Shown here piece after piece: positions 21,601 through 46,354 of a stretch of DNA of 64,000 nt. Origin of the DNA: Eunapius fragilis (Eukaryota; Porifera; Demospongiae; Spongillida; Spongillidae); the NCBI GenBank assembly GCA_963681505.1, contig OY811984.1, positions 6,714,097 through 6,778,096 of the forward strand. The letters are read 5' to 3'. Position numbers and translations under genes: made by a program. The notes beneath the pieces are model-generated. The model saw nothing but the letters and a program-made list of their open reading frames with translations, searched no databases and was not told the origin of the DNA. Each line of letters opens with the position of its first letter. The first letter of the stretch is position 1.

Positions 21601-24600
21601 CTAATTAAAAGTACAATGATTGACCCCTTGTGCTGCGTAGGAAGTCATCAAAAGCTTTCTGGAGCAGGCAATAGCATAGCGACTTTCCACTACCCCCAGA
21701 CATGACCATATCATTCCCTCTTTAAAAATGCATCTCGTAGCCATTTTCCAAAAATTTATATTATCCATCAGCAAATCACGTGACTTTACGTAAGCTGTAA
21801 TTCGGCTGAAATCTTGATCAGTGTGCATGTAAACACTGACAAAGGTAACCAGATGTACTTCTAGTCGTTTTGTTTCTCTCATCCTTATTCCATCATACGG
21901 TGAACAATGTATGTCTGGCTTGCAAGACTAAATTACATAGGCAAAACCCCTTCTTTTTTGAAATTTTAAAGGTGTGCAATTCAGAATGACACTGTCCATG
22001 GCACCTATGACAACCTCCACGACACCTTCAGGAACACCCTGTGACCACTGCCAGCACAGTGATCCAAATACTTGCCCCTCCCACCCTCCTTCCCCCACAC
22101 ATCACACCTCCCTCACCAGGTGAAGGTACATACCACACCCTCTCTCCCCACACATCACACCTCCCTCACCAGGTGAAGGTACAGCTCTCCACGTGTTGGG
22201 CACATACATCTGTCACCTTCTTCCACCTCTCCTCCCCAGGGTCTATCCCCGCAACGTTCAGTCTCCACAGCAAAGCAATAGCATCGACCAATCCAAACAG
22301 ATTATCAGGCTGGGTCTGCTCACACAGCACAGTGTCAAACTCATGAAATACACCCTCCATGTTGCCAAGGTCTAGGTGATGATGATGAGCATTGGTCCAT
22401 CATTGATCCTCATATTGGATACAGGGCCACCACCTCCCCCCCCTCCCCAAAAAAAATTATCCTCCCATATACATGGGTATTGCCAATTAAGTCAATTAGC
22501 CTAGAATTGATCCTAAAAAAACTTCCAGTGTAATATTAGTATAGTCACTGAGTGGATCCCTATCTTCGCTCAAACATAGATATGAGTGCATGGTTATCAT
22601 TGCAGTGATTAGGATCAGGGGCGTGTATATACAATACACAGCACATGCACACATACATGGTCACCAAAACCTTCCCAACGCACCCACCTCCCCATCAGAA
22701 GGGTGACCACACCTACCAAGGTAATGCAGAGCCAAATGCCATGTGATGTGACCATTGAGAAATGAACTGCTCCACTCCTGTCTTGATGAGGTAAGGAACT
22801 CTACCCCAACCATAGCATCCCTCTCCTCTTCAATCACATGACCTACACTAGCCATGGAGTCAAATAGCTTAAATTAACAAGATGCAATGGTCTCACTGAT
22901 GGTATGGTAGGCCCATGGTGTCTTCTTCTGAAGGTCAAGTGCCTTCCTGGCCAGCTCCTCTGCCCTATCACGTTGGTTGGTCTGCTCCAACGCAAACGCA
23001 TAGCTGAGAACAAGAGATGAGTTAGTATTTGCCATCCAGTTCACAAAATCACGTCACTCTGCTTCTGGACTGAATACAATGATGACACATTATTTTTGCC
23101 ATTGATGTGGTCATGGGCTCCATATATGGAATAGTTGGAGATCAACTACAATTGCAGATCATATATCTGCAGCTGCAGTAGTAGAATACCACTGCTCAGG
23201 GCTTCCCTCAGTGTGCCGCCAGTGTTACAAACATCCCTACACAGTTAAGCCCCCCCCCCATACATACAGCAACACAACATGGCAGTCCAGTGTTTTTGGG
23301 GAAGATATGTAATTACAATGCAATATGACTTGGGGTGGGGGGCAGTCAACTTTTGTTGACCTCCCACCATCATTGTTACAACCCATTCACAGAAAAAGTG
23401 TTAAATATCTGCTGCTAAGGTGACCAAATGGACATGGTTGCTGGTCCCCAAGCTTAACAGTGTGGCCTACGACAAAGGGGTACAAGGTACAACATACAGG
23501 GTATAAGGTAGCATGCAGACAAGGGGACAGAGAGTGGGGTATGGGGGGGGCCACAAAGATACAATGTGTAGTCCTGGGTACTCACTAGCTTAGAATGAAG
23601 GGATACAGGTCATCACCTTCTGCCCACCATGGTAAGACGGCTGCCAGGTAGTCCCTCATCAGCATGAACTCAGCCAGGTCAATGCACGCGTCAAATAACA
23701 CTTGGATGGCGAGGATGTCTGGCAGGTAAGTTTGCACATCAGTTTGACATTTTTGGAGTATAAATTACACAGACATTTTTATTCCGTCGTATCTACTGCT
23801 CTGACAATGGATTTTGTCCAATGTAACTGTCCCATCTGCTCCCTGAAGTCAAGTGATGTATTTAAACTTTGTTTCATTCTGGCACAAGGGATCTATATGG
23901 CTGTCATGTGTTAGTATGTACATACTTTCTTGTATCTGTTATAAGTATAGGCAGAGCAAGGATATCACTATGGGCGGAGCAAGGATATCACTATGAGTGG
24001 AGCAAGGATATCACTATGGGCAGAGCAAGGATATCACTATGGGCGGAGCAAGGATATCACTATGGGCGGAGCAAGAATATCACTATGGGCGGAGCAAGGA
24101 TATCACTATGGGTGGAGCAAGGATATCACTATGGGTGGAGCAAGGATATCACTATGGGTGGAGCAAGGATATCACTATGGGTGGAGCAAGAATATCACTA
24201 TGGGCGGAGCAAGGATATCACTATGGGTGGAGCAAGGATATCACTATGGGTGGAGCAAGGATATCACTATGGGTGGAGCAAGGATATCACTATGGGTGGA
24301 GCAAGGATATCACTATGGGTGGAGCAAGGATATCACTATGGGTGAAGCAAGGATATCACTATGGGTGGAGCAAGGATATCACTATGGGTGGAGCAAGGAT
24401 ATCACTATGGGTGGAGCAAGGATATCACTATGGGTGGAGCAAGGATATCACTATGGGTGGAGCAAGGATATCACTATGGGTGGAGCAAGGATATCACTAT
24501 GGGTGGAGCAAGGATATCACTATGGGTGGAGCAAGGATATCACTATGGGCGGAGCAAGGATATCACTATGGGCGGAGCAAGGATATCACTATGGTCGGAG

Positions 24601-27743: not shown

Positions 27744-30700
27744 CTAGGAAAGTTGCGCTATCTTGATTGGACCATGTCCCATGTTTTCATGTAAGCCTTT
27801 TACCTCTGCATACAATTTCTCCAATGTCTTGCTTTTTGGTTTCATTGCCTAAGGGGTGTGGTCACCAACAAATAAATGACAATGCCACTCCCTAATAGTG
27901 CCCAGGCCATACCCTGAGTTCAGCAATGAGTGCCAGTGCCAGAGGTAGCTGCTTTGATCGGATGGCAGCATGGATCAAGGTGACACTGAAGACCTGTCTC
28001 TGAGCCCAGCTTCCTCCCAACTTGACCAGGTCATACTTGAGGGGGAGCATCAGGGAGATGACCTGTGTGATATCACACAAGAGAAGGCCATAAAGAGAAT
28101 GTAGCTACAATCATAACATAGACACAGAAATGAACACGTACACACACACACACACACACACAGATAAAAACATTCTCCAGCGAGGGTATAGAAATTGAAG
28201 GTAAAGGTGGTGAAGGGAACAAGGGTGTGGGAAAAAGAAAATGACTTAAACCTAAATTCAGCACATGACAAACATAGGTTTTAGTTTCACTTTCTCATCA
28301 GAGAAAGTCTTTATATATACTTGTTTTCTCTATTATTGTTCACAAATAGCACCTTCAGCAATAGTTACTACAGGTGTATTATTTCATAATTTGTTCACAA
28401 ATAGCACTTCAGCAATAGTTACTACTATTTCATAATTTCTAGTTTACATGCATTGTTTTTTTTTTAAATTTTATTTATTTTCCCTCCTCTCGCTAAGCTC
28501 TCCTGCCGACACAGCTCGTCTCCTGTCTATATTTTCTCCCCATGCATCAGCCTGGCTTTCTGTAATACCATCTTCAGGCCTGGGCCTAAACCTAGACCCC
28601 AATGAGCACCAAATAACCACCAAGCGGTGGCCAGGTCTGGTCACTTCCTCTGGCTCTCCCTGTGCTTTGTGCCCAGACAACTCTCTGGGTAGGACACCAC
28701 GCCTTAACTTGCAAGCACAGTGTTCTGGCACAATAAGCTCCGAGACATAGTCCTGCCACCATGCAGACATCAGTGCTAAGGTTGAAGCAGGTAGTGGCCT
28801 AGGACATGATCTCCACTGAACACGCCCTGCAGACATCCTTGCTTCTGACTGGCTCTGTGGCAAGCCTGCTGCCTTTGACCTCACTGTGACCTTTCCGCTA
28901 AACCCTTCTGTTCTTTTGGAAGCGGGTGTCACAGCAGAGTCAGCAGCAGCCACTAAGCTTAGAAAACACTCTGGCAACGATTGAAATGCTCCGAGCTTGG
29001 GTGGGGCTTGTATCCCCTTGGCGACAGGGTCCTATGGAGCATGGGGCACATAAGTCCAAGAGGCTTTCTTGCGCCTGGCCTCTCACCTTGCCATCAGACA
29101 TAACGAACCAAAGCCAAAGATGGTTGCCGGACTTTACAGTCGACTCAACCTGACCCTGGACTTGGCAACACAAGGGCTCTCCTCATGAGGATACCTCTTG
29201 AGGCAGCATAATTATTATACCAAAGTAGTTATTATTAAAAGATCAGGTGTACATTATTGTAATGTACATGGTATATACCGGTAATTAACGTTTTTATAGT
29301 TCTACTGTTAAGATAAAATATTCTGTCTTGTTTGAACCGTGGTACTACAATCACGTTTCTTCCTGTACATGCTGCCAGAGTAAATGTTATGGAGGCCTGG
29401 GGACCAAATTTTACAGCTGCAAAATACACATCTAGTCACAAACAAGTTGTTGCATGCTGTTACAACAGCATGCATGCTGCTGTCGTGGACAACTGGATAA
29501 CCCACCACCAAAGCCTGCACCAAATTATGCTATGCAGGCATGCGTGTTTAAAACTGGTATTGCACATACCATTTGCATCAGATCAGTTTAGCATTAGGTC
29601 AGTTTCAAAACACTACATAGGAATTGTAGAGTGAAGCGTCAGCTCAATAAAAACACCACAAATACCTTGTATGGGCATAGGTCTCTTTGCATTGTATGCG
29701 TGCATGGTAGTCCAGGATCTAACATTAGGGTTATGGGGGGGGGGCACATTACTAATAGAAATGTAGAGTCGTAGGCATGGCAACAAATACCTCACTGTAT
29801 TGGGAACACAACTACCCACCTCACTGTATTGGGAACACAACTACCCACCTCACTGTATTGGGAACACAACTACCCACCTCACTGTATTGGGAACACAACT
29901 ACCCACCTCACTGTATTGGGAACACAACTACCCACCTCACTGTATTGGGAACACAACTACCCACCTCACTGTATTGGGAACACAACTACCCACCTCACTG
30001 TATTGGGAACACAACTACCCACCTCACTGTATTGGGAACACAACTACCCACCTCACTGTATTGGGAACACAACTACCCACCTCACTGTATTGGGAACACA
30101 ACTACCCACCTCGCTGTATTGGGAACACAACTACCCACCTCACTGTATTGGGAACACAACTACCCACCTCACTGTATTGGGAACACAACTACCCACCTCA
30201 CTGTATTGGGAACACAACTACCCACCTCACTGTATTGGGAACACAACTACCCACCTCACTGTATTGGGAACACAACTACCCACCTCACTGTATTGGGAAC
30301 ACAACTACCCACCTCACTGTATTGGGAACACAACTACCCACCTCACTGTATTGGGAACACAACTACCCACCTCACTGTATTGGGAACACAACTACCCACC
30401 TCACTGTATTGGGAACACAACTACCCACCTCACTGTATTGCTCTTTGCCAAATGCAAGAAGAGCATTGCCAACCGGAACACCAACCTACATAGGAGAGTG
30501 TTAATAAAATGTGTAGCTGTATAACTGACCTTTTTTTTTAAGTTCTTGCGATTGGACAATGTTTCCCAAGGTGACATACATGCCCATGTAACCATACAAC
30601 CAGCTGTATGTCCCCAAGGTGACATACATGCCCATGTAACCATACAACCAGCTGTATGTTCCCAAGGTGACATACATGCCCATGTAACCATACAACCAGC

Positions 30701-33118
30701 CGTATGTTCCCAAGGTGACATACATGCCCATGTAACCATACAACCAGCTGTATGTTCCCAAGGTGACATACATGCCCACATAACCATACAACCAGCCATA
30801 TATTCCCAAGGTGACATACATGCCCATGTAACCATACAACCAGCTGTATGTTCCCAAGGTGACATACATGCCCATGTAACCATACAACCAGCTGTATTTC
30901 GCAAGGTGACATACATGCCCTTGTAACCATACAACCAGCCGTATGTTCCCAAGGTGACATACATGCCCATGTAACCATACAACCAGCCATGTTCCCAAGG
31001 TGACATACATGCCCATGTAACCATACAACCAGCTGTATGTCCCCAAGGTGACATACATGCCCATGTAACCATACAACCAGCTGTATGTTCCCAAGGTGAC
31101 ATACATGCCCACATAACCATACAACCAGCCGTATGTTCCCAAGGTGATATACATGCCCATGTAACCATACAACCAGCCGTATGTTCCCAAGGTGACATAC
31201 ATGCCCATGTAACCATACAACCAGCTGTATGTTCCCAATGCCCATGTAACCATACAACTGACCATACTGTTCTACTAAGACCAAGTTCTTAACTTCATGT
31301 ATTGGGAGAATTATAATGAACCAAATGTGAACTGATCCAACCCATAGAAAAATCCCTATAAATTTCTGCAAACATATTATGCACAGCCCGTTACTCTCAC
31401 TCACCACATCAGCAACCTTGCAGTCCGTGGACACACCACTTTTGGCATACTCACTGATGTTCTGAGAGAGGAAGGAGTCCAAATGAACACACCCTACCAA
31501 CTGCCCAAGATGCACCCACCTTGAGTAACCTTTCAGCAAGGACCAGCCTTGCAGTAGACTCTGTGACCTTCCCATGTGCCAGTGACATCATCATGTGCAC
31601 ATCAAACCTGCAAGAATGGCATTGCCCCCCGTCCCCCGTCCCCCCAATCACGTAATGCATAATGTCCAATACTACCAACGTACAGGCAAGGGGGGGGGGG
31701 GGGGCTGTCAGTAAATAATTAAAATCCCTCCCTCACACATCACACCTCTCTCACCAGGTGAAGGTACATACCACACCCTTCCTCTCCACACATCATACCT
31801 CCCTCACCAGGTGAAGGTCATACCACACTCTCCCTCCCTACACATCACACCTCTCTCACCAGGTGAAGGTACTTACCACACCCTCCCTCCCTACACATCA
31901 CACCTCCCTCAGATGAAGGTCATACCACACCCTCCCTCCCTACACATCACACCTCCCTCACCAGGTGAAGGTCATACCACACCCTCCCTCCCTACACATC
32001 ACACCTCCCTCACCAGGTGAAGGTCATACCACACCCTCCCTCCCTACACATCACACCTCCCTCACCAGGTGAAGGTCATACCACACCCTCCCTCCTCACA
32101 ACACACCTCCTTCACCAGGTGAAGGTCATACCACACCCTCCTTCCTCACACATCACACCTCCCTCACCAGGTGAAAGTACATACCACACCCTCTCTCCCC
32201 ACACATCACACCTCCCTCACCAGGTGAAGGTACATACCACACCCTCTCTCCCCACAATCACACCTCCCTCACCAGGTGAAGGTACATACCACACCCTCTC
32301 TCCCACACATCACACCTCCCTCACCAGGTGAAGGTACAGCTCTCCACGTGTTGGGCACATACATCTGTCACCTTCTTCCACCTCTCCTCCCCAGGGTATA
32401 TCCCCGCAACGTTCAGTCTCCACAGTAGAGAGGCAGCGTCAATAAGTCCAAACAGGTTATCAGGTTCAAGCAAGCTACACAACACAGTGTCAAATTCACG
32501 GTACACTTCATCCAATTTGCCATGGTCTATGAACACAGAAGAGCACAGGCATGCTAATATGAACACCACATCTGCTCTAATTATTTGGGAGCACCACATC
32601 TGCTCTAATTATTTGGGAACACCACATCTGCTCTAATTATTTGGGAACACCACATCTGCTCTAATTATTTGGGAACACCACATTTGGGAACACCATATCT
32701 GCTCTAATTATTACATCTGCTCTAATTATTTGGGAGCACCACATCTGCTCTAATTATTTGGGAACACCATATCTGCTCTAATTATTACATCTGCTCTAAT
32801 TATTTGGGAACACCATATCTGCTCTAATTATTACATCTGCTCTAATTATTAGGGAATACCACATCTGCTCTATTTATTAGGGAACACTACTACATATGTT
32901 CTAATTTTACACACTGCCTACTGATGTGCAAGGGCAAACCCACCCCTCACCAAGGTGGAAGAGGGCCAGGTGCCAAGAGATGTGGCCATTCAATAAGGAA
33001 CCATTCCAGTTCTCCCTGGATGATGTTAGGAGCTCCACACCACTTGCAGTGTCTCTCTCCTCTTCGATCACATGACCTGTGTGATAATCAGGTGATCACC
33101 CAACCATTGTCACAACAC

Positions 33119-33192
<74 letters not shown>

Positions 33193-35600
33193 CACACTCA
33201 CATACATGCACTCACTGATGGTATGGTAGGCCCATGGTGTCTTCTTCTGAAGGTCAAGTGCCTTCCTGGCCAGTTCCTCTGCCCTATCACGTTGGTTGGT
33301 CTGCTCCAACGCAAACGCATAGCTGAGAACACGCCCACCAGACATAGCTGAGGTCACACCCAGCAGTAAACATTTACCTAGTTCTATGCACCACAGCATA
33401 TGGTAGGGGTTACAGGAGCACCACAGCATGTGGTAGGGGGTTACAGGAGCACCACAGCATATGGTAGGGGTTACAGGAGCACCACAGCATGTGGTAGGGG
33501 GTTACAGGAGTTACCACAGTATGTGGTAGGGGGTTACAGGAGCACCACAACATATGGTAGGGGGTTACAGGAGCACCACAGCATACTGTAGGGGGCTACA
33601 GGAGCACCACAGCATATGGTATGGGGGGGGGGGGGGGGGGGGGGGGGCCACAAAGATACAATGTGTAGTCCTGGGTACTCACTAGCTTAGAATGAAGGGA
33701 TACAGGTCATCACCTTCTGCCCACCATGGTAAGACGGCTGCCAGGTAGTCCCTCATCAGCATGAACTCACCAAGGTCAATACATGACCCAAAGAGGAGTC
33801 TGATAGCAAGGATATCTGGGGGGGGGGGGGGGGGGGGCGGGGGGAAGTTGCTATGCTCATCAAACACCAACAAGGAAGGGAGACTTAATTGTGATCAGCT
33901 TTCACTGTGATCAGTTTTCAATTAATATCTCTTGTAAAACTACCAAGAGGAAAAGTGCCTTGCGTTAGAATGTTATGGAGCACAGCTCTATGAGCATCTA
34001 AACATGTCTGATCTCAATAATAATTATTTTTTTTCACCAGCCACTGATGTTTGGTTAATGAAAGAGGATCAAGAGTTAACAGTTTACCTTCAGTTACAAG
34101 TATGGATGATTGAACCCTCCCAATTTCAGAACTGCCCAGCTGGGAATTTACCTTTTCATGTTGAGAAAATTACATCGCAGATGTATATGAGACGTTTTAT
34201 GACAAAATCAGGATGGTGTAAAATAGCATCAATTTCAAACCCACATGTATATCTTCTGAGCCAAACGACCCATGTGCATGTCCTTCATATTTTCAGCACT
34301 TATTGCCACATCAGTTCTTATTGCCACATCCCACACATATATTATTATTATTATCGTTTCGCACCATTCTATATTTTAGAAGAGGTTTCATCCATTGAAA
34401 TATAGAATGGTGCGAAACGACCGGGAAAATTGCTCTGATTTAATATCTTGATTATAGATTAAGTAAAATTCAACAATCTGCAGAATCTGATAGCAACAAG
34501 ACTCCTTTGGGGGTGTTGCAATTTTGGTGATGGAGAGAAGCTCCTTCGTTCAGTTTTATGTGTTTTTAACCCTGAAGGGTACTGAACGTTGGTACGGACG
34601 AATGTAAAGGGTTTATAGTGTGTAAGAATAGAATAAAATAAGAACTGATGTGGCAATAAGTGCTGAAAATATGAAGGACGTGGGTTGTTTAGCTCAGAAG
34701 ATATGTGGGTTTGACATTGATGCTACTTTATAGTGGTTTTTATTGAAAAAAGCGCAAGCGTGGTTTTTGTCATAAAACATCCTGTGTGTATATATTATAT
34801 ACTTTAAGCAGGTCATTGACTTGATATTTGAACTGTCACCACCCCCACATAGCATGCTGCAATGATAAACATTGTCGTCCGGTGACGCATTATAGTGAAC
34901 ACAAGTGATCATTCCTATAAACATACATATTGATATAACCTTTTGGATAGTCGATGAGAATAGCTTGCCATATTTCCATCGCCTTAGGCCTGTTTCCAGA
35001 AGCGAAAATCTGCATTGCTTTGATGTGGGCCTTCTCACGACCTGATAAGTTTGGGTCGGGAGATTTCATCGCCTCGAGGTGAGAAGAAACTGAGGAGAAA
35101 ATATTAACGTTAGCTGCCAGTTGAACAAGCATGCCTAGCGGATCTGGATGTCATAGGGACATGATACCACTTACCATTGGGATGGCTCGGTGGTGTTGAA
35201 CTTGACAACCAGAAATTTCCCTAGACAAGCACAGCCAGAGGGAAGCCAAATAATGTGGCTTCCCTCTGGCTCTGTGCTTGCTCGCGGGCCATGACGTAAT
35301 AAATTATTATTGTGACGTTGACATGGACTACAAAGGAATATGTACGCAATATGCTACACTACATCACATGGATAGGTGCAATTTATTACGTCATGGCCCG
35401 CGAAACATGTATGCCTATATCCTCACCAACATGCAGTGAGCGAGAACAAAGCCTCTGTCCAGCTCGCATGCCTCGCGGAGGTACGACAGTGAGCTCTCAT
35501 TGGTGCTAAGGGAGGCGTGAAGTGCTTGGTTGAACAGCTGGAGCGCCCTTTCGCTCCCGCACCTCAAAGGGAGGCCCCCCCTATCCAGGTGCAGTTCCAT
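27744..35600 (-). CDS. TTC38: TTC38-like TPR protein, copy B
   Basis: Twelve minus-strand exons: 35600-35427, 35220-35175, 35089-34940, 33815-33683, 33322-33216, 33076-32951, 32526-32325, 31607-31520, 31461-31405, 30485-30429, 28062-27913, 27848-27744. All phases close, giving 464 aa. The start is MELHLDRGGLPLRCG. Exon boundaries and phases are identical to copy A. Exons 4 (3' part), 5, 8, 9, 10 and 11 are almost identical in DNA to copy A, including the 58-bp intron 8, whereas exons 1-3, 6 and 12 differ widely. The exon 3 donor (AAAAG|GTTATATC) is weak. The exon 4 acceptor has an almost pure poly-C tract. Function is as for copy A: an uncharacterised TPR-repeat protein. Both copies look intact. 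Confidence 0.88.
28480..29195 (+). mobile_element. Degraded retroelement tail (zinc finger plus nuclease region)
   Basis: Plus-strand fragments read ARLLSIFSPHASAWLSVIPS, then SPCALCPD, and later KPAAFDLTVTFPL and GACIPLA. This is the C-terminal region of a widespread reverse-transcriptase element family: a cysteine/histidine finger followed by a restriction-like nuclease domain (RPAD...D). I place it with RLE-type LINEs by inference. It is truncated at the 5' side and broken in several places. It lies in intron 10 of TTC38-B, opposite in strand to the gene. Confidence 0.6.
29785..30440. repeat. 29-bp minisatellite at the TTC38-B exon 10 donor, about 22 copies
   Basis: Same unit as 19656-20808, again starting exactly at the exon 10 donor (30429) and spreading into the intron. 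Copies here are more uniform than in copy A. Confidence 0.95.
30567..31240. repeat. 48-bp minisatellite, about 14 copies
   Basis: The unit is CCAAGGTGACATACATGCCC plus ATGTAACCATACAACCAGCT and GTATGTTC. It lies in intron 9 of TTC38-B. The period is divisible by three, hence long artefactual frames on both strands. Confidence 0.95.
31728..32338. repeat. 50-53-bp minisatellite at the TTC38-B exon 7 donor, about 12 copies
   Basis: Each unit carries CCCTCACCAGGTGAAGGT, the reverse complement of ACCTTCACCTG|GTGAGGG, which is exon 7's end plus its donor. The real junction is the rightmost copy (32325). Confidence 0.93.
32560..32895. repeat. AACACCACATCTGCTCTAATTATTTGGG array, about 28 bp
   Basis: About 12 irregular copies in intron 6 of TTC38-B. 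Confidence 0.9.
33122..33200. repeat. (CA)n microsatellite near the exon 5 donor
   Basis: On the gene strand this is a TG tract starting about 15 bases after the exon 5 donor of TTC38-B. Confidence 0.95.
33395..33622. repeat. CACCACAGCATATGGTAGGG array, about 30 bp, 7-8 copies
   Basis: Tandem units ending in a poly-G stretch near 33620-33647, in intron 4 of TTC38-B. Confidence 0.9.
34190..34780. mobile_element. Nested fold-back element in TTC38-B intron 3
   Basis: The left arm 34190-34320 and right arm 34640-34780 are inverted copies (shared CAGCACTTATTGCCACATCA and TTTCAAACCCACAT). Inside, CGTTTCGCACCATTCTATATT at 34354-34376 pairs with 34398-34420 as a second hairpin. No coding capacity, so a non-autonomous DNA element is likely. 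Confidence 0.7.
35226..35402. repeat. Two adjacent hairpins in TTC38-B intron 1
   Basis: 35226-35248 pairs with 35256-35280 (CAGAGGGAAGCCA, 7-base loop). 35283-35305 pairs with 35380-35402 (CGCGGGCCATGACGTAATAA). The second hairpin places inverted CRE-like TGACGTAA sites in its arms. It occupies nearly all of the intron. Confidence 0.7.
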
Positions 35601-36801
35601 TGAATTGTAGATTAATCACAAATAATAGAATATTATTATCATTCTTAATACGTGCACGTGCGCTAATCTTGGTGTCGATGCGCGCGCAGACGTAGTTGCA
35701 TTACATTGCTTTTGCAATGACCAACCTATGAATAAATTTTGCATCGTCGTAGTGTTTTGTGCGAGTGTTTTTTCAACACAGGTGCATGGGAAAACGCGTT
35801 GCGGAATTTTATAGCACATTGCGTACAGTAACTTGCGCTGTTCAATCATGTGGCGATTTTACAATTTTTGAAATCATTTCTTGTGTAATAATATTAAAAA
35901 CAATAAGTACATGACGTATTCTTTTTTAAAAACTGCATTCTACCAAGAGCATTTGGGCCAACTGGGTTGTTTCACAGCAAAAAATAATAATAAACGCGTC
36001 AAATCAATTCTTGGTTTTCAATTGATTTACATACCTGGTACATAATGTTAACAGTTTGTACCAGGTATGTAAACATTTTGTACAGAATGTAAGTGACAAA
36101 TCAATTGATAATCAAGAATTGATTCGACGTGTTTTTTTTTTGCTGTGTTTACTTAAGTAAATTTAGTAAGTTATTATTATTATGCGCAACAGCGTTATTA
36201 TTTTACTGCATTAGCTAAAACGCTATTATTAGCAACACACCCTTAAAAAAATACTTACACGCAGCTAAATCTTCGAAGAGATGTAGTATAGTATTTCATC
36301 TCGGCATTGCCACACAAATGCAAAGGAGCAGAAACTTAACGTTACGCGTTCCAGTCCATGTAATAATTTAGGAGAGTCCTTGATTGAATTAATTATTGTC
36401 GCCTCAGCATAATCCTGAGCTAGCTCACTTGGATTGATCAGCTGGCTATAGTTAGTCGCTTATTTTATAATATATAAATCAAATAATTAATTAATGAAGT
36501 TCGGAAAAATGGCGCAGCTGTGGTTTGGTTCAGACAGCACTATGAGTGACCAATGTGTGGAAAAGGCTGGTCTACAATGTACCTAGCAATCCAGCTAGAA
36601 AACTATCGAACAATAGAGCATTTGGGAGGACATGGATTGTTGTGCAGATGGTGATTAAATAACACCTGTCAGCACCCCACCCCCCTCCTATCGACGAGCA
36701 GTTAGAAGTTAGCTCATGCTTTCAGTTTACATGCAATGCATACAACACATCACTTTAGGTGATTACAGTCATTGAGGTGAGAGAGGTGTACATGTTCACT
36801 C
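35601..36801. other. Intergenic region, TTC38-B to FKBP-CRTAP
   Basis: AT-rich, with a 171-bp inverted-repeat element (listed separately) and TATA-like strings near 36465. No exon or RNA gene recognised. It should contain the TTC38-B promoter. Confidence 0.5.
35975..36145. mobile_element. 171-bp MITE-like inverted repeat
   Basis: CAGCAAAAAATAATAATAAACG at the left matches the reverse complement of the right end (CACGTC, AAATCAATTCTTG and CAATTGATTT shared). Towards the centre, TACATACCTGGTACA pairs with TGTACCAGGTATGTA. Nearly the whole element can fold. Confidence 0.72.
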
Positions 36802-37992
36802 CTACAGCTCTTGGTGTGGAATGCTTCTCATCACAGCAGGATCTCCCATCAACCCTTCCTTCTTCTTTGGCACACGGGTACGTGCAAAGTGGAGCAGTTC
36901 CTTCGCAGCCTCCAAGCGAGCATGCATAGCGACGTACTCCTTCCTTGGGACAAAACTCTCCGCAGGTATGTTCAGCTTAGTGGTGTACAACCGGATGTTA
37001 TCATTCATCACAACACTGGAGGGATCCAAGGCCAGGTAGGTGGCAGCCGTTTCAGCTGCCTTTTCGAACAAACCAAGCTTGTAGTAGGCAAACTGTAGGT
37101 AGTGGAAGTGGTTCTCTAAGTAACGATCAACATGGACGCCCTCAATGGTGGCCAACTTGTCAACACAGCCAATACGGCAGCCAAGCACCTCCCTGATGAT
37201 GACGGTGAGCAGGGCATAGTACTCCATGCTGTCCACTTTGAGTGAGTGCTCTTCAAACTTGGCCATCTTCTGTGGACTCACCCCGTGCTGCGTCAGGTTG
37301 AGGTACAGGGAATCCTCGCATACGAGATGGCAATGTTCCAAGGCAGTGTCATAGAGGACCAAGGCTTCTTCAAAAGTGGTGACCGACTTCTGCCAATCGC
37401 TGCTTTCGTATGCTGTCTTGGCAATCAAATAACTCTCATGGTGGGGGGACTTGCCAGGAATGCGGTACATGACTTGGTCGTCTTTCAGCCCCAGCTGCCG
37501 CCTGTAGTAGGAGAGGCCATCACTGCACATCACTCCAGTGTGGCTGAAGCAGTATGTGAATAGACACTTAGCGCCCTCCTCAATGTTGCCAAGTTTGAAG
37601 TAGGAATAGTGCAGATAGGAGTAGGGCTCGTTTTGTCGAAACTTAGAAAGAACTTCAGAATCAGGCATCCTGAGCTTTGGGGGTAGCTGGCTACCCTTGC
37701 AGCGGGCTACACATTTGCTCCTAGCGGCATAAACGAGGAACTGAGACATGAGTGGATCTTCTTCTATGGCTGCTGTGACTACAGCCTTCTGTGTCTCACT
37801 TAGCTGGGGAGACTGAGTACTGCAGTTCTTGAGGCATGCAAGGGTGATGTTCTCGTAGTGGTGGTACAGCCTCAGGGCTTCCTCCAGTGTGTCCACTGTC
37901 TGCTGCCACTCCTGTCGGGTGTAGCTACCCAGTGCTGAGCTCCACAAGCTCTCTATGCTTTGGTCTTCCCCAAGGGAAAACCCATTCTAGAG

Positions 37993-38049
<57 letters not shown>

Positions 38050-38765
38050 TTAAAAATAAATTGAGTGTTGATTAACAGAAATTAAAATGAAGGTCTAAAA
38101 AAACGCGAGCAGTCTAAATAGTTAACACAGGGGAAAAAAAAAAATTCTGTTCCCAAAAACGATTCCACCTTAGAATAAATAAACCACAACGACGATGATG
38201 GGGCTGCCTAAGTAAACAGTGAAATGTTTCACGGAACAAATCCAAGGTGGAATCGTCTTTGGAAACAGAATTTTTTTCTTCCTGTGGTTGCAATTCAGTA
38301 GGCAAACATGGTTAAATCCAAGACCGCTCTCACCCGCTCGATTTTGATAAGTCGCACGTAAAACACCAGGGTCGAATTGGGTGGTATGGTTGAACCGACC
38401 CCTCGTTCCCCATACCCCAGGTGGGGAGGGATGGTGATCCTTCTCCTCTCCCATAGACACATTCTGAGCAGGCCGCGGTCCATGCCCGCTATGATTCTCC
38501 CCTGGCCAAGGGCTACAATGTAGGGCGAATTGTAGTCGAAGCTTTTGCCGAATGTGTTACCGTCTTGAGCCAACCTGCCGACGTAGTGATAGTGGACGAC
38601 GTCGGAAGCTTTGGTTCTGTGCTGGCAATCGTCCGGCATGAATGTGGTGAGTACCTTGAGACCATCGCCCCAGTCTTCATCTAACGGGAGAGGGCTCTTT
38701 TCGTCAGCTTTGCCGTGAATGCAGCTGGCAAGCAGCAGCAGCAGTATAGATAGAGGGCTTAGCAT
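36802..38765 (-). CDS. FKBP domain spliced to CRTAP/leprecan-type protein (predicted fusion)
   Basis: Exons 38765-38334 and 37986-36802 join in phase 0 (LIKIER|NGFSLGEDQ), predicting 538 aa. Exon 1 opens with a signal peptide (MLSPLSILLLLLASCIHG) followed by one FKBP peptidyl-prolyl isomerase domain: VHYHYVGRL, SFDYNSPY, GQGRIIAGMDRG, IPPHLGYGERG, IPPNSTLVFYVRL. The usual Trp of the active site is Met here. Exon 2 is a leprecan-family helical region with four CxxxC motifs (CLKNC, CVARC, CHLVC, CRIGC) and HYLQFAYYKLGLFEKAAETA near the C-terminus, as in CRTAP and P3H4. It has no dioxygenase domain, no start codon context and no signal peptide of its own. The 347-bp intron has a GTGAGA donor and a (CT)n-TCGCTCTAG acceptor. 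If the FKBP exon is read without splicing it stops after VLDLTMFAY, so two separate genes remain possible. Expected site: endoplasmic reticulum, collagen prolyl 3-hydroxylation. Confidence 0.72.
37996..38048. repeat. (GA)n tract in the FKBP-CRTAP intron
   Basis: On the gene strand it is (CT)n directly upstream of the acceptor, forming an ideal polypyrimidine tract. Confidence 0.95.
38137..38278. mobile_element. Short MITE-like inverted repeat in the FKBP-CRTAP intron
   Basis: 38137-38171 (AAATTCTGTTCCC, then ACGATTCCACCTT) and 38244-38278 are inverted copies with few mismatches around a 72-bp centre. No coding capacity. Confidence 0.7.
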
Positions 38766-38988
38766 GTTTGTTGCGATTCGACCTCAACTTGCACAACAGT
38801 ATAGAAATCGTGCATTAGTATTAATATAACAAAAGGATGAAGTAACATAATAGGTATATATATTGGGCGCTTAGCCCGCATGGGCCGGGGATCACAAAGA
38901 GAGTAAAACCCCTGTAATAAAGTCTAATCAACGCCCGCCTTTAAAAAATTTAACTCCGTCACCGTGGCATGTTCGAAGCGAATGCAAG
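38766..38988. promoter_or_regulatory. Bidirectional promoter, FKBP-CRTAP and CCNDBP1
   Basis: The two start codons lie head-to-head 223 bp apart. The interval has an AT-rich part (ATATATATTGGGCGC near 38858) and a GC patch (GCATGGGCCGGG near 38878). A shared promoter follows from the spacing; start sites are not visible. Confidence 0.55.
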
Positions 38989-39539
38989 ATGAGCATAGCA
39001 ACTTCCAGGGCACCCATCCACTCTAACCTTCCAGAGGACCTGCGTGATAGACTTGAAAGCATCCTCGAGAACAACAGTCTTCTAAGTAGACAGTTAAGAG
39101 GTCAGTTTGTTTTTTAATTCGTTCTTGCCACCTTATGTGTGTGTCTGTTCGCTATTACGTTTTTCTTTTGCTTGAAAAGTCCAGTAGCTGATATTAATCC
39201 GTTCTTTTTGTAGAAGGGAGGTTAGAGCATTACCAGGTGCTGGACACCACTGAATATCTGCCAAGACTGGACCAATGTGCGCGTGTGGTCTCAGACGCTT
39301 GCACTAAACTGGCAATCCAGTTCTCCAAGCCCCCCCTTCCGTCTGCTCAGGACTGCGGGGTCATCTGCAGCCGGCTGGAGAACGCTGTGCTAGTCCTCGT
39401 CTCTACATGTAACGTATTCCCAGAGGCGCAAGGTAACTATTGTGCCGTTTTCATTCCACACTTGTCCGTGTGTGCTGCTGTGTTTCCGTTGAGTGGTTCG
39501 CCTCCTTACACGTGCGACGAAATAATGTGTATGTACTAG

Positions 39540-39606
<67 letters not shown>

Positions 39607-40024
39607 ATTGTAACTTTTTGCCTCATCATTTGATGGGGCATTTGCGTTTGCTGTGTTGGCATTCAGAGCAGTTACCAACCAGTTCATTAGGCTGATGCCA
39701 ATGTTTGAAAAATGTGTGAGGATCAAAATGGTGGCTATAACATGGAGACCACTCTTTGAAACACATGACCTGCATGAAGGGTGTAAGAAATGAATTACCT
39801 TGGATAAAGGGAAGGTGACTTATTGCTTGTTTCCAGAAGCAGCATTACAATAGGAGTTAGAGTATTGCTGAAACAACTGTCTGTTTTTGAACATAACACC
39901 TGTCCAGTTTGGTTGACTAGCTTTTTTTGGTCCTGTCATTTGGGTGATGGGTGAACTGCAAAACAGGTAATGACAACAAATAAATAACCACTTATGTCCT
40001 CATCTATACTGCAGTGGAATATGT

Positions 40025-40091
<67 letters not shown>

Positions 40092-41766
40092 ACATCTCAT
40101 AACCACCATCATCACAGGGTGTGCTCTTAAGAAGGAGGTTCAGAAGGTGGTATTGGACATTCTGGATGGAGTGAGTCTGCTAACAAGGGCCCTCATGGAA
40201 GAAGGATGTGCAGGGTATGTGTGCTGTATCTGGCCTTGGGAAGTTGTGGAGGATATGTGTGCTGTGTGGAGAAGGATATGTGCTTGTTAGTATGTTTTTT
40301 TGATGGCACAAATTCACAGGGCTGTGCGAGTGTGTGTATGTGTGTGTGTGTGTGTGTGTGTTGTGCCTGGGAAACTTATTGATATTCTCACACAGTGCTT
40401 CAAAACTCAAAGGAGCAGGATCTGTGTGGGAGGCTTGTGACTCTGTTGCAAAATTGCCCAAAGGTCAGTTGTTGCTATGTGCTTTATTAACCAACATTGT
40501 CGTTACCTTGGTTGCAATTTTGTAAACAGACAACAGATCGGCAGTTTTAAAGGTGTTCATAGCCCAACTGCACCTTCTGAAAGATGTTTGTGCACAGATG
40601 GATGAGGTGAGCTTTAAGCTATCACGCGCTTCTTTGCACACAGTACATGCATGAATGCACAGATATGCCCAATATACGTTGGTCCTCAATTGAGGGAGAG
40701 TGGGTGTATGTGTGTGTGTTTGTATGTGTGTATGGTGTGTTGACATAGTTACTATGATAGTTGAGAAACCGCTACCGCCTCACCCAACCTCTCCGACCTT
40801 TCATCTTTTCCAGAAGAAATGTGTTTGCACTTGTACCTTATGCATGTTCTGTATCTGGTTACATGCACAAAAGGACAGGTATGTGTGTATTCCTCAAACT
40901 GTCCTGATTGTCATTGGTGGGAGACAGGCACTCTATCAAACCATTTTCATCTGCATGTACCTAACTACCTTTATCACAGACGTAATCACAGAGCATTTGA
41001 TAAAGCACTGTAGCAGTAGTCAAAATGGGTGACTTGCTACTTCTGTTGTCATATACCTAGCTATGCTTTTTGCAATGATTTGTGGATACTGTGCTGGCTG
41101 TGGGGGGCACCAACCTGTAGGGGGCACTAAGCCATAGGGGGCACTAAGCCGTATGGGGCACTAAGCTGTAGGGGGCACTAAACTGTAGGGGGCACTAAAC
41201 TGTAGGGGGCATTAAGCTGTAGAGGGCACTAGGCTGTAGGGGGCACTAAGCTGTAGGGGGCACAAGGCTGTAGGGGGCACTAGGCTGAAGGGGGCACTAA
41301 GCTGTAGGGGGCACTAAGCTGTAGGGGGCACTAGGCTGTAGGGGGCACTAAGCTGTAGGGGGCACTAGGCTGTAGGGGGCACTAGGCTGTAGGGGGCACT
41401 AAGCTGTAGGGGGCACTAGGCTGTAGGGGGCACTAAGCTGTAGGGGGCACTAAGCTGTAGGGGGCACTAAGCTGTAGGGGGCACTAAACTGTAGGGGGCA
41501 CTAAGCTGTAGGGGGCACTAGGCTGTAGGGGGCACTAGGATATTATGTTTGCCTTCAGTTGACTTCCAAAAAAATTAATTAAGGTCATACTATGTCCATG
41601 TGAAAAATCACTTTCACTTCACTAAACATTCATTATTTGCCATTAATCAGACAGGGTAATCAATATATCGTAGTGTGTGGGGAAGTAGGTGTGGTGATCA
41701 GTATATACATGTAGTGCAAGGGCGGAAAGGGCGGATGCGGGGGGGGGGGGGGGGGGGGGGTCCGGA

Positions 41767-41800
<34 letters not shown>

Positions 41801-44064
41801 TTATTGGCCGTCATTTCATAACCTATCGTACCAGTTTCAGGCGTCAATATGGATAGATTGTCTGTGTCACCAAGTACGGAACTCCCAAAAGTTTCCACGC
41901 TTCGCATGGGAGGGGGCATATCCCCTTCCTGCACCCTCCCCCTATTAGTTATTCATGTCAGCCCCCCCCCTTTCAGAATTCCTGTATTCGCCCCTGTAGT
42001 GGATGGAGGAATGTGTAGATCCTCTTTCAGTACTGTCATTGAATAACTGCATAACATGATGACCTGATTAAGGTTGTAGGTACAATCTACAAAGTATCTT
42101 CCGTTGGGATTGTGTGTGTTACCACCAATCATCTCGTTGACGTGAGGGGAGGGGGGGGTATCCTTGTGGTACTCCTTAAACACCCTAAACTTATGTGAAT
42201 GATCATATGGTACCAGGGGGGCTATATTAAGGATGATCATATGGTACCGGGGGAAGGGGGGGGGGGAGGGGGGGGGGGTGCTATATTGAGGATGATCATA
42301 TGGTACCAGGGGGGCTATATTGAGGATGATCATATGGTACCGGGGGGAAGGGGGGAGGGGGGTGCTATATTGAGGATGATCATATGGTACCGGGGGGAGG
42401 GGGGGGGGGAGGGGGGTGCTATATTGAGGATGATCATATGGTACCGGGGTGTTGTGTGGGTTAATTATTCTGTTACTGCTCTCCATCTTAGCTTTTCGCC
42501 TCTAATGGGGTTGGCACCCATCGCAGAATGGAGCAGGCAGAGGCAGAGGTTCATAATGGCTCTGATGGCTGGACCCAGCAGGAGAGAGATTTGGCCTTAC
42601 CTTGCATCAATATCATCAAGGTGTGTTGGTGGTGGGGGGGGGGCACAGAACAATGAAGGGAACTATAATAGCAAATATTTCATTGCTATCCCATGATGGC
42701 AATTATTTAGAAAATGCTGCATGTTGTCACATTGATGCATATTTTCACCCCCTGAAAGAGTCTTACATTCTTACTGACCTGTTTTGGTTGTTACAACAAA
42801 ATGATTATCTTTGTGACATGCAGTACTACAATGTTGCATTGTGTTGGGGACTGCTGTGTTAGGGACTGCGGTTGCAGTTTAAATAGTCACTAAGGCTGTT
42901 TCCTCTCCCTCCTGTCACTTTAGAGTGCTGTGGAGGTGACAGAGAACATGTCCAGAGTGGTGGTGTCCCATGGTAGTGTGGCTGAAGAGAGGTCTGTGCA
43001 GGAGCTGGATATTGCTGCAGAGGAAGTGATGAAGTTGAGCCCACTGTGAGTGTGAGGGTGTGTACACTGTGCGGGTGTCCACTGTGAGTGAGGGTGTGTG
43101 TTGAACCACTGAGTGTGGGTGTGTGTGTGTTTTGTCCACTGTGAGGGTGTGTCCATTGAGTGTGGGGGTGTGTCCACTGTGAGTGTGAGGATGTGTGTTG
43201 GGCCCGTTGTGGTAAATGTCAACATGGACACATTACAGATATGTTGTTCATTATGCCTTGAATGCACCCAGTTGTGTTTTAATTCATACACACAAATCTC
43301 TGGTATATTATATTGTTCAAAGTACTTGTATATGTCCTTACTTTTGAGATTGTATTGATACTAGCATACATGTATCTGGTGGGTCTGTGTTGGCATATAT
43401 GTTTATGGTGGGTCTGTTGGGGCATACATGTATCTGGTGGGTCTGTGTTGGCATATATGTATCTGGTGGGTCTGTGGGGCGTACATGTATCTGGTGGGTC
43501 TGTGGGGCGTACATGTATCTGGTGGGTCTGTGGGGCGTACATGTATCTGGTGGGTCTGTGGGGCGTACATGTATCTGGTGGGTCTGTGGGGCGTACTGTG
43601 TATCTGGTGGGTCTGTGTGGGCATTTTACTTATCCTTTCTTGTTCATCTTTGTTTCAGGGCTGATGACCTTGCTGAGGAGTTGGAAGCACCTTTGAACGC
43701 CAAGAAATGTGCAGAGATTGTGAGAGACCTTTTGGTGTTGCTGTATGTTATGGATTCTTTTTTACGTTTGGTGAACTTTGACAGTTCGATGTTTCATGCA
43801 TCACACTGGTCTTTGAAATGGACAGCCTTACCATTTTAAATACCGCGTACGCATGATTTTTGCATAATAGGTCCTAGTTGCAAAAAATGTTGTGTGCATA
43901 TTGTAATGTTGCTACCATTTTTCAAATAACTTCCGTGACAATTTATGTTCACTACTCAAATAAATCATCCTATTTAATTGTGTGATTGTGCTGCTTGTTT
44001 ATTACTTCATTAGGGTGCAGCCATGGCATCAGTCATTGTGGAGTTCCTGAAGACTGTTGAGTGA
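38989..44064 (+). CDS. CCNDBP1: Cyclin-D1-binding protein 1 homolog
   Basis: Nine exons: 38989-39100, 39214-39432, 40118-40214, 40396-40463, 40530-40606, 42492-42620, 42924-43045, 43659-43719, 44014-44064. All phases close, giving 311 aa; human CCNDBP1 has 360. Matching blocks: ACTKLAIQFSKPPLPSAQDC with human ATTLTIVFSQLPLPSPQET; VVLDILDGVSLLTRALMEEG with LDIVDGMAQLME; SVWEACDSVAKLPKDNRSA with SVWVACQQMPQIPRDNKAA; and VMKLSPLADDLAEELEAPLN near the end. The vertebrate protein (GCIP/DIP1) is a helical partner of cyclin D and helix-loop-helix factors, acting in the nucleus and cytoplasm. No membrane segment or signal peptide. The exon 6 start at 42492 uses a pyrimidine-rich TCTCCATCTTAG acceptor; AG sites further in would be poorer. 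Introns carry (GT)n tracts, a 17-bp array and an array seeded by the exon 7 donor. Confidence 0.88.
39540..39606. repeat. (GT)n microsatellite
   Basis: In CCNDBP1 intron 2, about 108 bases after the exon 2 donor. A second GT tract at 40026-40089 lies near the exon 3 acceptor. Confidence 0.95.
41100..41542. repeat. CTGTAGGGGGCACTAAG minisatellite, 17 bp, about 25 copies
   Basis: Uniform array in CCNDBP1 intron 5 with AAG/AGG alternation. Confidence 0.95.
41739..41799. repeat. Poly-G / poly-C hairpin
   Basis: A run of 22 G, the 8-base loop TCCGGATG, then 31 C. Potential G-quadruplex or stable hairpin in CCNDBP1 intron 5. The exact run lengths may be assembly-dependent. Confidence 0.8.
42200..42450. 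repeat. GATGATCATATGGTACCGGG array with G tracts
   Basis: Five units of GCTATATTGAGGATGATCAT plus ATGGTACC, each followed by a variable G-rich spacer, just upstream of CCNDBP1 exon 6. Confidence 0.85.
43041..43200. repeat. Array seeded by the CCNDBP1 exon 7 donor
   Basis: The exon end plus donor CCCACT|GTGAGTGTGAGGGTGTG is followed by degenerate copies: TCCACTGTGAGTGAGGG, CCACTGAGTGTGGG, TCCACTGTGAGGGTG, TCCATTGAGTGTGGG, TCCACTGTGAGTGTGAGG. Several keep a usable GTGAGT. Confidence 0.8.
43368..43622. repeat. CATGTATCTGGTGGGTCTGT 28-bp array, about 9 copies
   Basis: Tandem array in CCNDBP1 intron 7, ending 36 bp before the exon 8 acceptor. Confidence 0.92.
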
Positions 44065-46354
44065 GTCCATTAATTTGTAGGGCATGTTGTTTGAAGGTGA
44101 AGTGTTGGGAGGGGACAAGTAGGTGGATTCGGGGTCGCATCATGTTATTCTCCACTCCCTGTACAGGGAGTATCATTTCTGTGTTGCTGCTGGACAAAGC
44201 TGGCAGGGAGCAGCATATAAAAAAACTATTACTGAAACAGTCACCTCCCTTGGAGCAAGAAGGACTCGTTGACACTCTGTAACATTCCTTATTTTATTGT
44301 TGGTACTTTTTAACAAGAAAACAAATCTTAAATAGAAAGTAACCTTTATCAACCAGAAAGAAAATTGTGCACACTAAAGTAAAAATTAACCAGCAGTTAG
44401 TGACCTCAAGATTATTTCATATCTAAGAGACACATATGTCATATGTCCTCTACAACTTCTTTCTTACGCACTGGAAATTAGACTCTCCACCATGAATTTA
44501 TAGTGGCCTAATTTGGCTTACATTTTAATGCGTGTGCCAACTTTGATGCTCCTTCCTGGAAAATTTTTATAATATGCTCATGGTCTCTTTTTGCTGACTC
44601 TCCTGTATACATATAAACAAGGGGCCTTATCGTGTGACGATTGTTAAGGAACTACATCACTGGGCCACTTGAGTCACTTGTAAATGAGACGTACACTTCT
44701 GCTTGCATTCGGGTCTGCTCAGGCACCATCCTACCTCATGGGACTGGGTACGAGATACTAGTTCTGTGACATCACATGCGCCTTGCATCATGTACTATTG
44801 TTGCCATAATGCTGGGCACGAGAGAACAGTGGATGGGAAAAGGCGGGAATCCATCTCACGTGGTACATGTGTGTATTATATATATAATGATTGTTCAGTT
44901 TCACTTCTCTGGTTTGTTTTGTGTCATATATATATATATATAGAGGGGTTGGAAATGTGTCACGTGAACCTTAGACATGCTTTTTTTTTGGGGACTGTAA
45001 CTTAGCTAGTGGAGGCAGGGCTTTGCTAGAAATTGCCTGCTATGTAGGTGCATGTACTTACTGCTACATTGTGCATATTTTTATGAACCAACATCATTAC
45101 CATGACTGCTAGACTGTTCATAGCTAGCCCACCCCTACACTTTCTAGATGATGTTGTGTGCAGAAATGCGAGGGAGGGGGAGTTTTCAACAATTGTACTC
45201 CTGAGGTGACACCACAATGCACACTGGCATACATATTAAACACACACGCACACACCTCAATGGAGGGATCAACATACATATCTTAGGCAACCTCATCTAT
45301 CTGCACCATCACCCAATCTCTTCAGCCTTCATCTTTGTGCTTACATGTGCACCTGTACCTTTATGCATGTGCAACATTTTTTGCTGCTTATAAATTTTAT
45401 TAATATTATATGAACTGTGTAATTACAAAAAATAAAAATGTATATTTTAAAGCATTCCCCCTCTTAATTTTCACTGAGCTACCAGTGCATCCTTATATCC
45501 TTCAAAGAGGTGTGGCGATTTTTATGGAACACCATCGCTGGGCCACTTAAGTTGCTTGTAGATGGAGTACTTGGGCCTCCCCCAACGTCCGTATACTTCA
45601 AGCTTGCACTCAGGTCTGCTCGAGCGCCATCCAACCTCGCGAGACGTGACGCAAGGGAAAGTGTGTGTGATATCCTGCTTGGGAGGGGTGAGGGGCGGGA
45701 GTCTAACAGTAGCTTTCGGCGACGTTTCTTTCAGTTTGGCTTCTCTAATTTTTTGGTTCATCTTTTGATATGCAAGGGGAAGAGCACACGCGTATTCAAG
45801 CCTGGCCGCCTCTGTTATATGCATGCACTTGTCCACGCAAATGAATTACGCCAACGCTTTTATTTATTCCCGTTCACATCATACATGTACAGGGTGTCCA
45901 CATTCGGACGCAACGCACGGGAATAATTATTAAATATATAAAAGCCGGCATTGCGCTCATTTCGTCAGTGGACATCCTGTACGTACGTGGGGACTCCTTA
46001 CCGTGTTATATCCCTCTGCTACGAATCCCCACCTGTGGGGCCAGGATTTAGACAAGGCGAGCTCATGGCGCACGTTATCCTTCCTGCAAACGACATTGGT
46101 AATCGGAGGTTTTAATAGCTATAATTAAGCAAGCTCAGCCTACCAGATTTCTTCCTGGTGCACAATATTGCAGTGCGTGACTGCCGGCTTCTCTCCAACT
46201 CCCATGCTTACCTCCTACCTTCAAAGCTGCAACACACTGAGAGACCCCCCACTTTCCGTCCGCAAGCAATTTGCAGTGGGCGTGGCGTTACCTAGCAACA
46301 GTCTGAACCAAGAAATCGTTCGCACCACGCCTACAGGGTACACGAGATCAACTG
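44065..46354. other. Intergenic region between CCNDBP1 and CEP89
   Basis: No supported exon. It holds an inverse copy of the 16331 repeat family (44438-44485), a TATATATAGAGGGGTTGGAAA motif near 44930 that recurs near 16795, and a diverged direct duplication (44630-44790 and 45510-45690). A 138-codon plus-strand frame at 45510-45926 lies in the duplicated part and has no recognised motif. Confidence 0.5.
44630..45690. repeat. Diverged direct duplication
   Basis: 44637-44755 and 45514-45645 share TGGGCCACTT, GCTTGTA, ATTC/ACTC-GGTCTGCTC and CACCATCCTACCTC/CGCCATCCAACCTC in the same order. The copies are about 880 bp apart. Confidence 0.6.

What the first reader, a model, noticed from the sequence alone, without database searches (positions are those of the whole stretch)
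36802..38765. Predicted fusion of an FKBP prolyl isomerase with a CRTAP-type subunit
Seen: the FKBP exon has a signal peptide and ends at an in-frame GTGAGA donor; the CRTAP-type exon has a strong (CT)n acceptor in the same phase, no signal peptide and no start. Known: in vertebrates CRTAP works in the ER with prolyl 3-hydroxylase 1 and the isomerase cyclophilin B, a separate polypeptide. Inferred: here an isomerase of a different fold (FKBP) is fused to the scaffold, a one-chain version of that complex. The FKBP active-site Trp is replaced by Met.
Basis: partly seen in the sequence, partly recalled or inferred. Interest (0 to 1): 0.8.

Follow-up and report, generated by a model that had tools for sequence, protein, structure and literature searches.

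The report
FKBP–CRTAP fusion gene in a sponge
A freshwater sponge appears to make, as one protein, a proline-bond isomerase joined to a collagen-processing helper that vertebrates keep as separate proteins; the gene layout supports this but no RNA evidence was available.

Summary
The window matches chromosome 14 of the freshwater sponge Eunapius fragilis by assembly sizes. One exon (38765..38334, minus) encodes a signal peptide and an FKBP domain and ends at the best donor-like site of its kilobase; 347 bases on, a 394-codon leprecan/CRTAP-type exon opens in the same phase. The second exon has no signal peptide and no usable start, and ends in HQEL, a KDEL-like tail. Exon 1 thus carries the ER entry signal and exon 2 the retention signal; one ER protein of 538 residues is the most economical reading. 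The genome also has a separate prolyl 3-hydroxylase gene and a cyclophilin B-like gene, so 'one-chain complex' overstates it: this is a scaffold with its own isomerase domain. That domain is FKBP65-like; its Met for Trp59 is shared with recalled FKBP65, and Asp37 and Arg42 are also replaced, so catalysis may be weak. In mouse, Fkbp10 lies beside Sc65, a CRTAP relative, possibly an echo. No transcript and no second species could be checked; the fusion rests on sequence alone.

The parts
38334..38765 (-). exon 1: signal peptide plus ER-type FKBP domain, 144 codons
   Evidence: FKBP_C residues 48-140, E=1.3e-28
38346..38624 (-). FKBP_C domain (residues 48-140); at the FKBP12 positions Asp37 is Gly, Arg42 Tyr, Trp59 Met, His87 Val
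38709..38765 (-). signal peptide, about residues 1-19 (cleavage site not predicted by a tool)
   Evidence: hydrophobic core, Kyte-Doolittle mean 3.14 over 9 residues
38328..38333 (-). splice donor GTGAGA, phase 0
   Evidence: best-scoring GT in 38900-37900
37987..38333 (-). predicted intron, 347 bases
38295..38297 (-). TGA that would end the FKBP frame if the intron is not removed
38136..38286 (-). MITE-like repeat with 40-base inverted arms inside the intron; partial or diverged copies on contigs C16, C12, C15 and C2
37996..38047 (-). (CT)26 tract before the acceptor
37987..37988 (-). splice acceptor AG, phase 0
36802..37986 (-). exon 2: CRTAP-type (leprecan TPR) part, 394 codons plus stop; four CxxxC pairs, three N-glycosylation sequons
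36805..36816 (-). C-terminal HQEL, KDEL-like ER retention signal (pattern recalled)
   Evidence: chance of such a tail about 7e-4
38989..39539 (+). start of a divergent neighbour with a GCIP_N (cyclin-D-interacting) domain; bounds the fusion gene's promoter
   Evidence: the start Met and the joining of its two frames are my reading

Best explanation
Two exons on the minus strand form one gene for a 538-residue ER-resident protein: signal peptide, one FKBP65-like FKBP domain, then a CRTAP-type leprecan TPR domain ending in a KDEL-like HQEL. Shown: both exons, matching phase, best-scoring donor of the region, no start for the second exon, and separate genes for a prolyl 3-hydroxylase and a cyclophilin B-like protein. 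Inferred: the exons are spliced; the protein enters the ER by the FKBP-exon signal peptide and stays by HQEL; the CRTAP part pairs with the C6 prolyl 3-hydroxylase on procollagen, and the tethered FKBP domain binds or slowly isomerises proline bonds of the same chain. Because Asp37, Arg42 and Trp59 are replaced, the FKBP part may serve more as a proline-peptide-binding chaperone than as a fast isomerase.
For: Domain hits FKBP_C 1.3e-28 and TPR_leprecan 7.4e-54; CRTAP is the best solved relative of exon 2, 2.9e-38, ahead of P3H1 4.6e-31. Donor and acceptor both phase 0; donor 5.28 against 1.87 for the next GT in the kilobase, and second of six when set beside the five donors that I read by eye in the same genome's cyclophilin B-like gene (0.42 to 5.36). 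One ATG only between donor and exon 2, and it closes after four residues. In the 20 kb scanned upstream on that strand only one other ATG with a hydrophobic start and a phase-0 donor of 4.5 or more turned up (50617/50530), beyond the divergent gene's start and weaker as a signal peptide (2.13 against 3.14). Entry signal on exon 1 and retention-like signal on exon 2 complement each other. The 12 codons after the donor align with the domain's own linker or three recalled FKBP65 linkers no better than shuffles (fraction 0.39 of 2000). A partner enzyme is present: on C6, a signal peptide with leprecan TPR, a second TPR exon, and pieces collinear with the P3H1 catalytic part.
Against: No RNA, proteomic or cross-species evidence. 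The acceptor's pyrimidine tract is a (CT)26 microsatellite, and the neighbourhood has other dinucleotide repeats. The donor weights are recalled, not learned from this species, and donor-like sites as good are not rare. Lack of a canonical poly(A) signal in the intron says little, because none of AATAAA or ATTAAA is found in the 1.2 kb after exon 2 either, only variants, and the weak variant AAGAAA occurs at 38280 in the intron repeat. Both single-sequence AlphaFold models failed (mean pLDDT 37.7 and 36.9). The genome keeps a cyclophilin B-like gene. The two C6 TPR exons match solved CRTAP slightly better than P3H1 (48.0 against 31.4 and 70.0 against 69.5 bits), so similarity alone does not say which sponge gene is the CRTAP counterpart; the absence of a catalytic part does.
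Confidence: 0.82

Rival explanations
1. Two separate genes in tandem: an FKBP ending at VLDLTMFAY, and a CRTAP-type gene whose first exon lies elsewhere.
For: The FKBP frame does have a stop 12 codons past the donor; one other hydrophobic ATG with a phase-0 donor (6.1 bits) exists at 50617/50530.
Against: No usable ATG in the interval; the alternative exon would have to lie beyond the start of the divergent gene at 38989 and is only weakly signal-like; a lone FKBP would have an entry signal but no ER retention tail.
Confidence: 0.1
2. One locus, more than one product: the fusion when spliced, and a short FKBP of 156 residues when the intron is retained, or a signal-peptide-CRTAP form by use of an early donor.
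For: An in-frame TGA soon after the donor gives a complete short FKBP; AAG|GTACTC at 38654 is also phase 0 and would link the signal peptide almost straight to exon 2.
Against: The early donor scores poorly (-0.57). The short FKBP would lack a retention signal. This rival does not exclude the fusion as the main product, so its odds overlap with the best explanation.
Confidence: 0.25
3. The fusion works chiefly outside prolyl 3-hydroxylation, for example with lysyl hydroxylase, as vertebrate FKBP65 and the CRTAP relative SC65 do.
For: The FKBP domain is FKBP65-like (recalled sequence); FKBP65 complexes with LH2 (PMC12794382 passages); SC65 belongs to a complex regulating collagen lysyl hydroxylation and Fkbp10 lies next to Sc65 in mouse (PMC4847768 title and passages).
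Against: The lysyl hydroxylase family GT_PLOD was not found in the genome, but that search rang in none of its control genomes either, so it shows nothing; whether exon 2 is nearer CRTAP, SC65 or P3H is unresolved.
Confidence: 0.2

Closest known systems
CRTAP (cartilage-associated protein), non-catalytic subunit of the P3H1-CRTAP-cyclophilin B complex
   Different: No signal peptide of its own; preceded by an FKBP domain; ends in HQEL, whereas in the mammalian complexes only P3H1 and P3H3 are said to carry ER retention signals (PMC4847768 passage)
FKBP65 (FKBP10), ER collagen chaperone and isomerase
   Different: One FKBP domain instead of four (recalled), no EF hands found, Asp37 replaced by Gly, and a leprecan TPR domain attached
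P3H1-CRTAP-cyclophilin B complex (solved, 8k0e)
   Same: The genome encodes all three kinds of part: hydroxylase, CRTAP-type scaffold, ER isomerase
   Different: The scaffold carries a covalently joined isomerase domain of the FKBP fold in addition to a separate cyclophilin B-like gene
FKBP51/FKBP52-type immunophilins
   Same: FKBP domain followed by a TPR domain (recalled)
   Different: Those are cytosolic HSP90 co-chaperones with short TPR motifs (recalled); here the TPR is of the leprecan type and the protein is routed to the ER

Membership tests
FKBP-type peptidyl-prolyl isomerases | FKBP_C domain | tested here: met
   PF00254 99.6 bits, cut-off 21.1
FKBP-type peptidyl-prolyl isomerases | substrate-cavity residues of FKBP12 (list of 11 in a PMC8530231 passage) | tested here: not met
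Leprecan family, CRTAP type | leprecan TPR domain | tested here: met
   PF23557 183.7 bits, positions 2-309 of 310
Leprecan family, CRTAP type | four CxxxC pairs (hallmark recalled) | tested here: met
   positions 51, 92, 219, 270 of exon 2
Leprecan family, CRTAP type | no 2-oxoglutarate oxygenase domain | tested here: met
   stop after residue 394; Pfam finds none at E 0.1; no PF13640 match in the window in the genome searches
Leprecan family, CRTAP type | own signal peptide | tested here: not met
   first in-frame Met of exon 2 is residue 80; no usable ATG in the intron; supplied by exon 1 if spliced
Leprecan family, CRTAP type | branches with CRTAP/SC65 rather than with P3H | tested here: inconclusive
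P3H1-CRTAP-isomerase complex | physical assembly with a prolyl 3-hydroxylase and activity on collagen | not testable with these tools
   a hydroxylase gene exists on C6; binding untested

The most novel reading that the evidence does not exclude
FKBP65-type isomerases and CRTAP/SC65-type scaffolds are an ancient linked pair in animals: fused into one chain in this sponge and still neighbours (Fkbp10 beside Sc65) in mammals, so the sponge protein exposes a direct functional partnership of FKBP65 with the leprecan scaffolds.
Probability: 0.12. Interest if true: 0.7.

Novelty: new variant of a known kind. Interest (0 to 1): 0.52.

Why it matters
A natural fusion is evidence that two proteins work together. 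It would tie an FKBP65-like domain to a CRTAP-like scaffold outside vertebrates, in a sponge, and give a single-chain protein with which to ask why the prolyl 3-hydroxylation scaffold needs an isomerase at all. Defects in CRTAP, P3H1, cyclophilin B and FKBP65 each cause recessive brittle bone disease (PMC4847768 passage), so the link is of wider interest.

Tried and rejected
Rejected: a separate signal-peptide exon for the CRTAP part inside the interval (no usable ATG); addition of a spliced leader to exon 2 (would still leave no in-frame Met before residue 80); the stretch after the donor as a conserved linker to a lost second FKBP domain (no better than shuffles); FKBP as a replacement for a lost cyclophilin B (a cyclophilin B-like gene with signal peptide is present).

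Led nowhere: one scan of viral contigs and one of prokaryote genome contigs for stray relatives of exon 2 (1 and 11 pattern matches, none confirmed); no metagenome scan was allowed. Single-sequence structure predictions were unusable, so no fold search was run. The five-row tree, the lysyl hydroxylase search, NCBIfam (only bacterial FKBP models, all below their cut-offs) and Rfam on 30000-45000 (no match) added nothing. Paper searches for FKBP with CRTAP and sponge (5 papers, all listed), FKBP with prolyl 3-hydroxylase, fusion or leprecan (20 of 38 papers listed) and CRTAP with Porifera (4 papers, all listed) showed no title or abstract start reporting such a fusion; listings only. Sponge 3-hydroxyproline (5 papers) and Ephydatia prolyl hydroxylase (none) gave nothing of use.

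Full report
Identity of the window. The genome holding it has 218,937,333 bases in 24 contigs and the window is C14:6714097-6778096. The published Eunapius fragilis assembly is 218.91 Mb in 23 chromosomes plus a 28.5 kb mitochondrial genome (PMC12616128; start of abstract, passages). Contig lengths seen here, C6 10.49, C9 9.79, C13 7.35, C21 5.79, C14 7.20 and C22 5.50 Mb, agree with its table. The window is therefore taken to be chromosome 14 of this freshwater sponge (inference from sizes). The paper says that RNA reads and an Ensembl annotation exist; neither could be reached here.

The two exons. On the minus strand, 38765 to 38334 encodes 144 residues: a hydrophobic signal-like start and an FKBP domain (FKBP_C 1.3e-28). 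The reading frame continues 12 codons beyond a GTGAGA to a TGA. From 37986 to 36802 a 394-codon frame matches TPR_leprecan over positions 2-309 of 310 (7.4e-54); among solved proteins it finds CRTAP at 2.9e-38 and P3H1 at 4.6e-31. It has four CxxxC pairs, three glycosylation sequons and ends in HQEL.

Splicing. With recalled metazoan donor weights, the GTGAGA donor at 38333 scores 5.28, against 1.87 for the next best GT in 38900-37900. The five donors that I read by eye, by homology, in the same genome's cyclophilin B-like gene score 0.42 to 5.36. Donor-like sites at or above 5.28 occur 149 times in 128 kb of strand, so the site alone is not rare; its position just at the domain end and its phase are what count. 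Exon 2 begins after a (CT)26 tract and TCTAG. Between the donor and exon 2 there is one ATG, which opens a frame closed after four residues. Of eleven poly(A)-type words tested, only AAGAAA occurs in the intron; but no AATAAA or ATTAAA occurs in the 1.2 kb after exon 2 either, so this says little. In 20 kb upstream on that strand only one other ATG combined a hydrophobic start with a phase-0 donor of 4.5 or more (50617/50530), and it lies beyond the start of a divergent gene with a GCIP_N domain whose first Met I place at 38989. The 12 codons past the donor align with the domain's own linker and three recalled FKBP65 linkers no better than shuffles (best score reached in 0.39 of 2000). A repeat with inverted arms fills 38136-38286 of the intron; partial or diverged copies lie on contigs C16, C12, C15 and C2. 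Without it the intron would be about 196 bases.

Why one protein. If unspliced, the FKBP would enter the ER and have no retention tail, and the CRTAP part would have a retention-like tail and no way in. Joined, they make a normal ER-resident protein. The chance of a tail of the form [KRHQSA][DENQ]EL (pattern recalled) in a protein of this composition is about 7e-4.

The company it keeps. A genome search with TPR_leprecan gave three matches: this exon and two exons on C6 (counts are lower bounds by the tool's own note). First to last piece is about 47 kb; that they form one gene is inferred from order and strand. The two C6 TPR exons match solved CRTAP a little better than P3H1. A cyclophilin B-like gene with its own signal peptide lies on C22.

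The FKBP domain. Both recalled FKBP65 domains have Met at the Trp59 position, so that change is not special. Against the FKBP12 cavity list in PMC8530231 (passage), 5 of 11 residues are identical, 2 conservative and 4 changed, among them Asp37 to Gly and Arg42 to Tyr. Weak or altered catalysis is likely; binding to proline-rich collagen segments remains plausible (inference). Other FKBP_C matches in the genome lie on C9, C13 and C21; they were not worked out as full genes.

A possible echo. Whether this and the sponge fusion share an origin cannot be told: the tree that would show whether exon 2 is on the CRTAP/SC65 side is unresolved, with very long branches.

Limits. No transcript, no relative with the same arrangement (searches cover viral contigs and prokaryote genomes only), no usable structure model. 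Searches of the held papers listed no report of such a protein (5 of 5 listed, 20 of 38 listed, 4 of 4 listed; titles and abstract starts only).

Noticed in passing
window 38136-38286: MITE-like repeat inside the predicted intron, with partial or diverged copies on contigs C16, C12, C15 and C2.
   Followed up: partly
G000 C6:4485460-4532550 (L022, L023, L036-L038): The sponge's prolyl 3-hydroxylase pieces spread over about 47 kb, whereas the FKBP-CRTAP gene fits in 2 kb with one intron at the domain junction, as if both halves had lost their introns.
   Followed up: partly
G000 C22:1238812 and C22:1278703: Two cyclophilin loci with identical match scores about 40 kb apart, a recent duplication by the look of it.
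   Followed up: no
window 10413-12262 (+): Frames that look like a nuclear receptor DNA-binding and ligand-binding domain (recognised by eye).
   Followed up: no
window 19455-21039 and 29759-30524 (+): Two arrays of the same minisatellite, open in all three frames, about 9 kb apart; a different array lies at 23951-25630.
   Followed up: no
window 38765-38989: Head-to-head start with a GCIP_N (cyclin-D-interacting) gene, 223 bases between the two ATGs, suggesting a shared promoter.
   Followed up: partly
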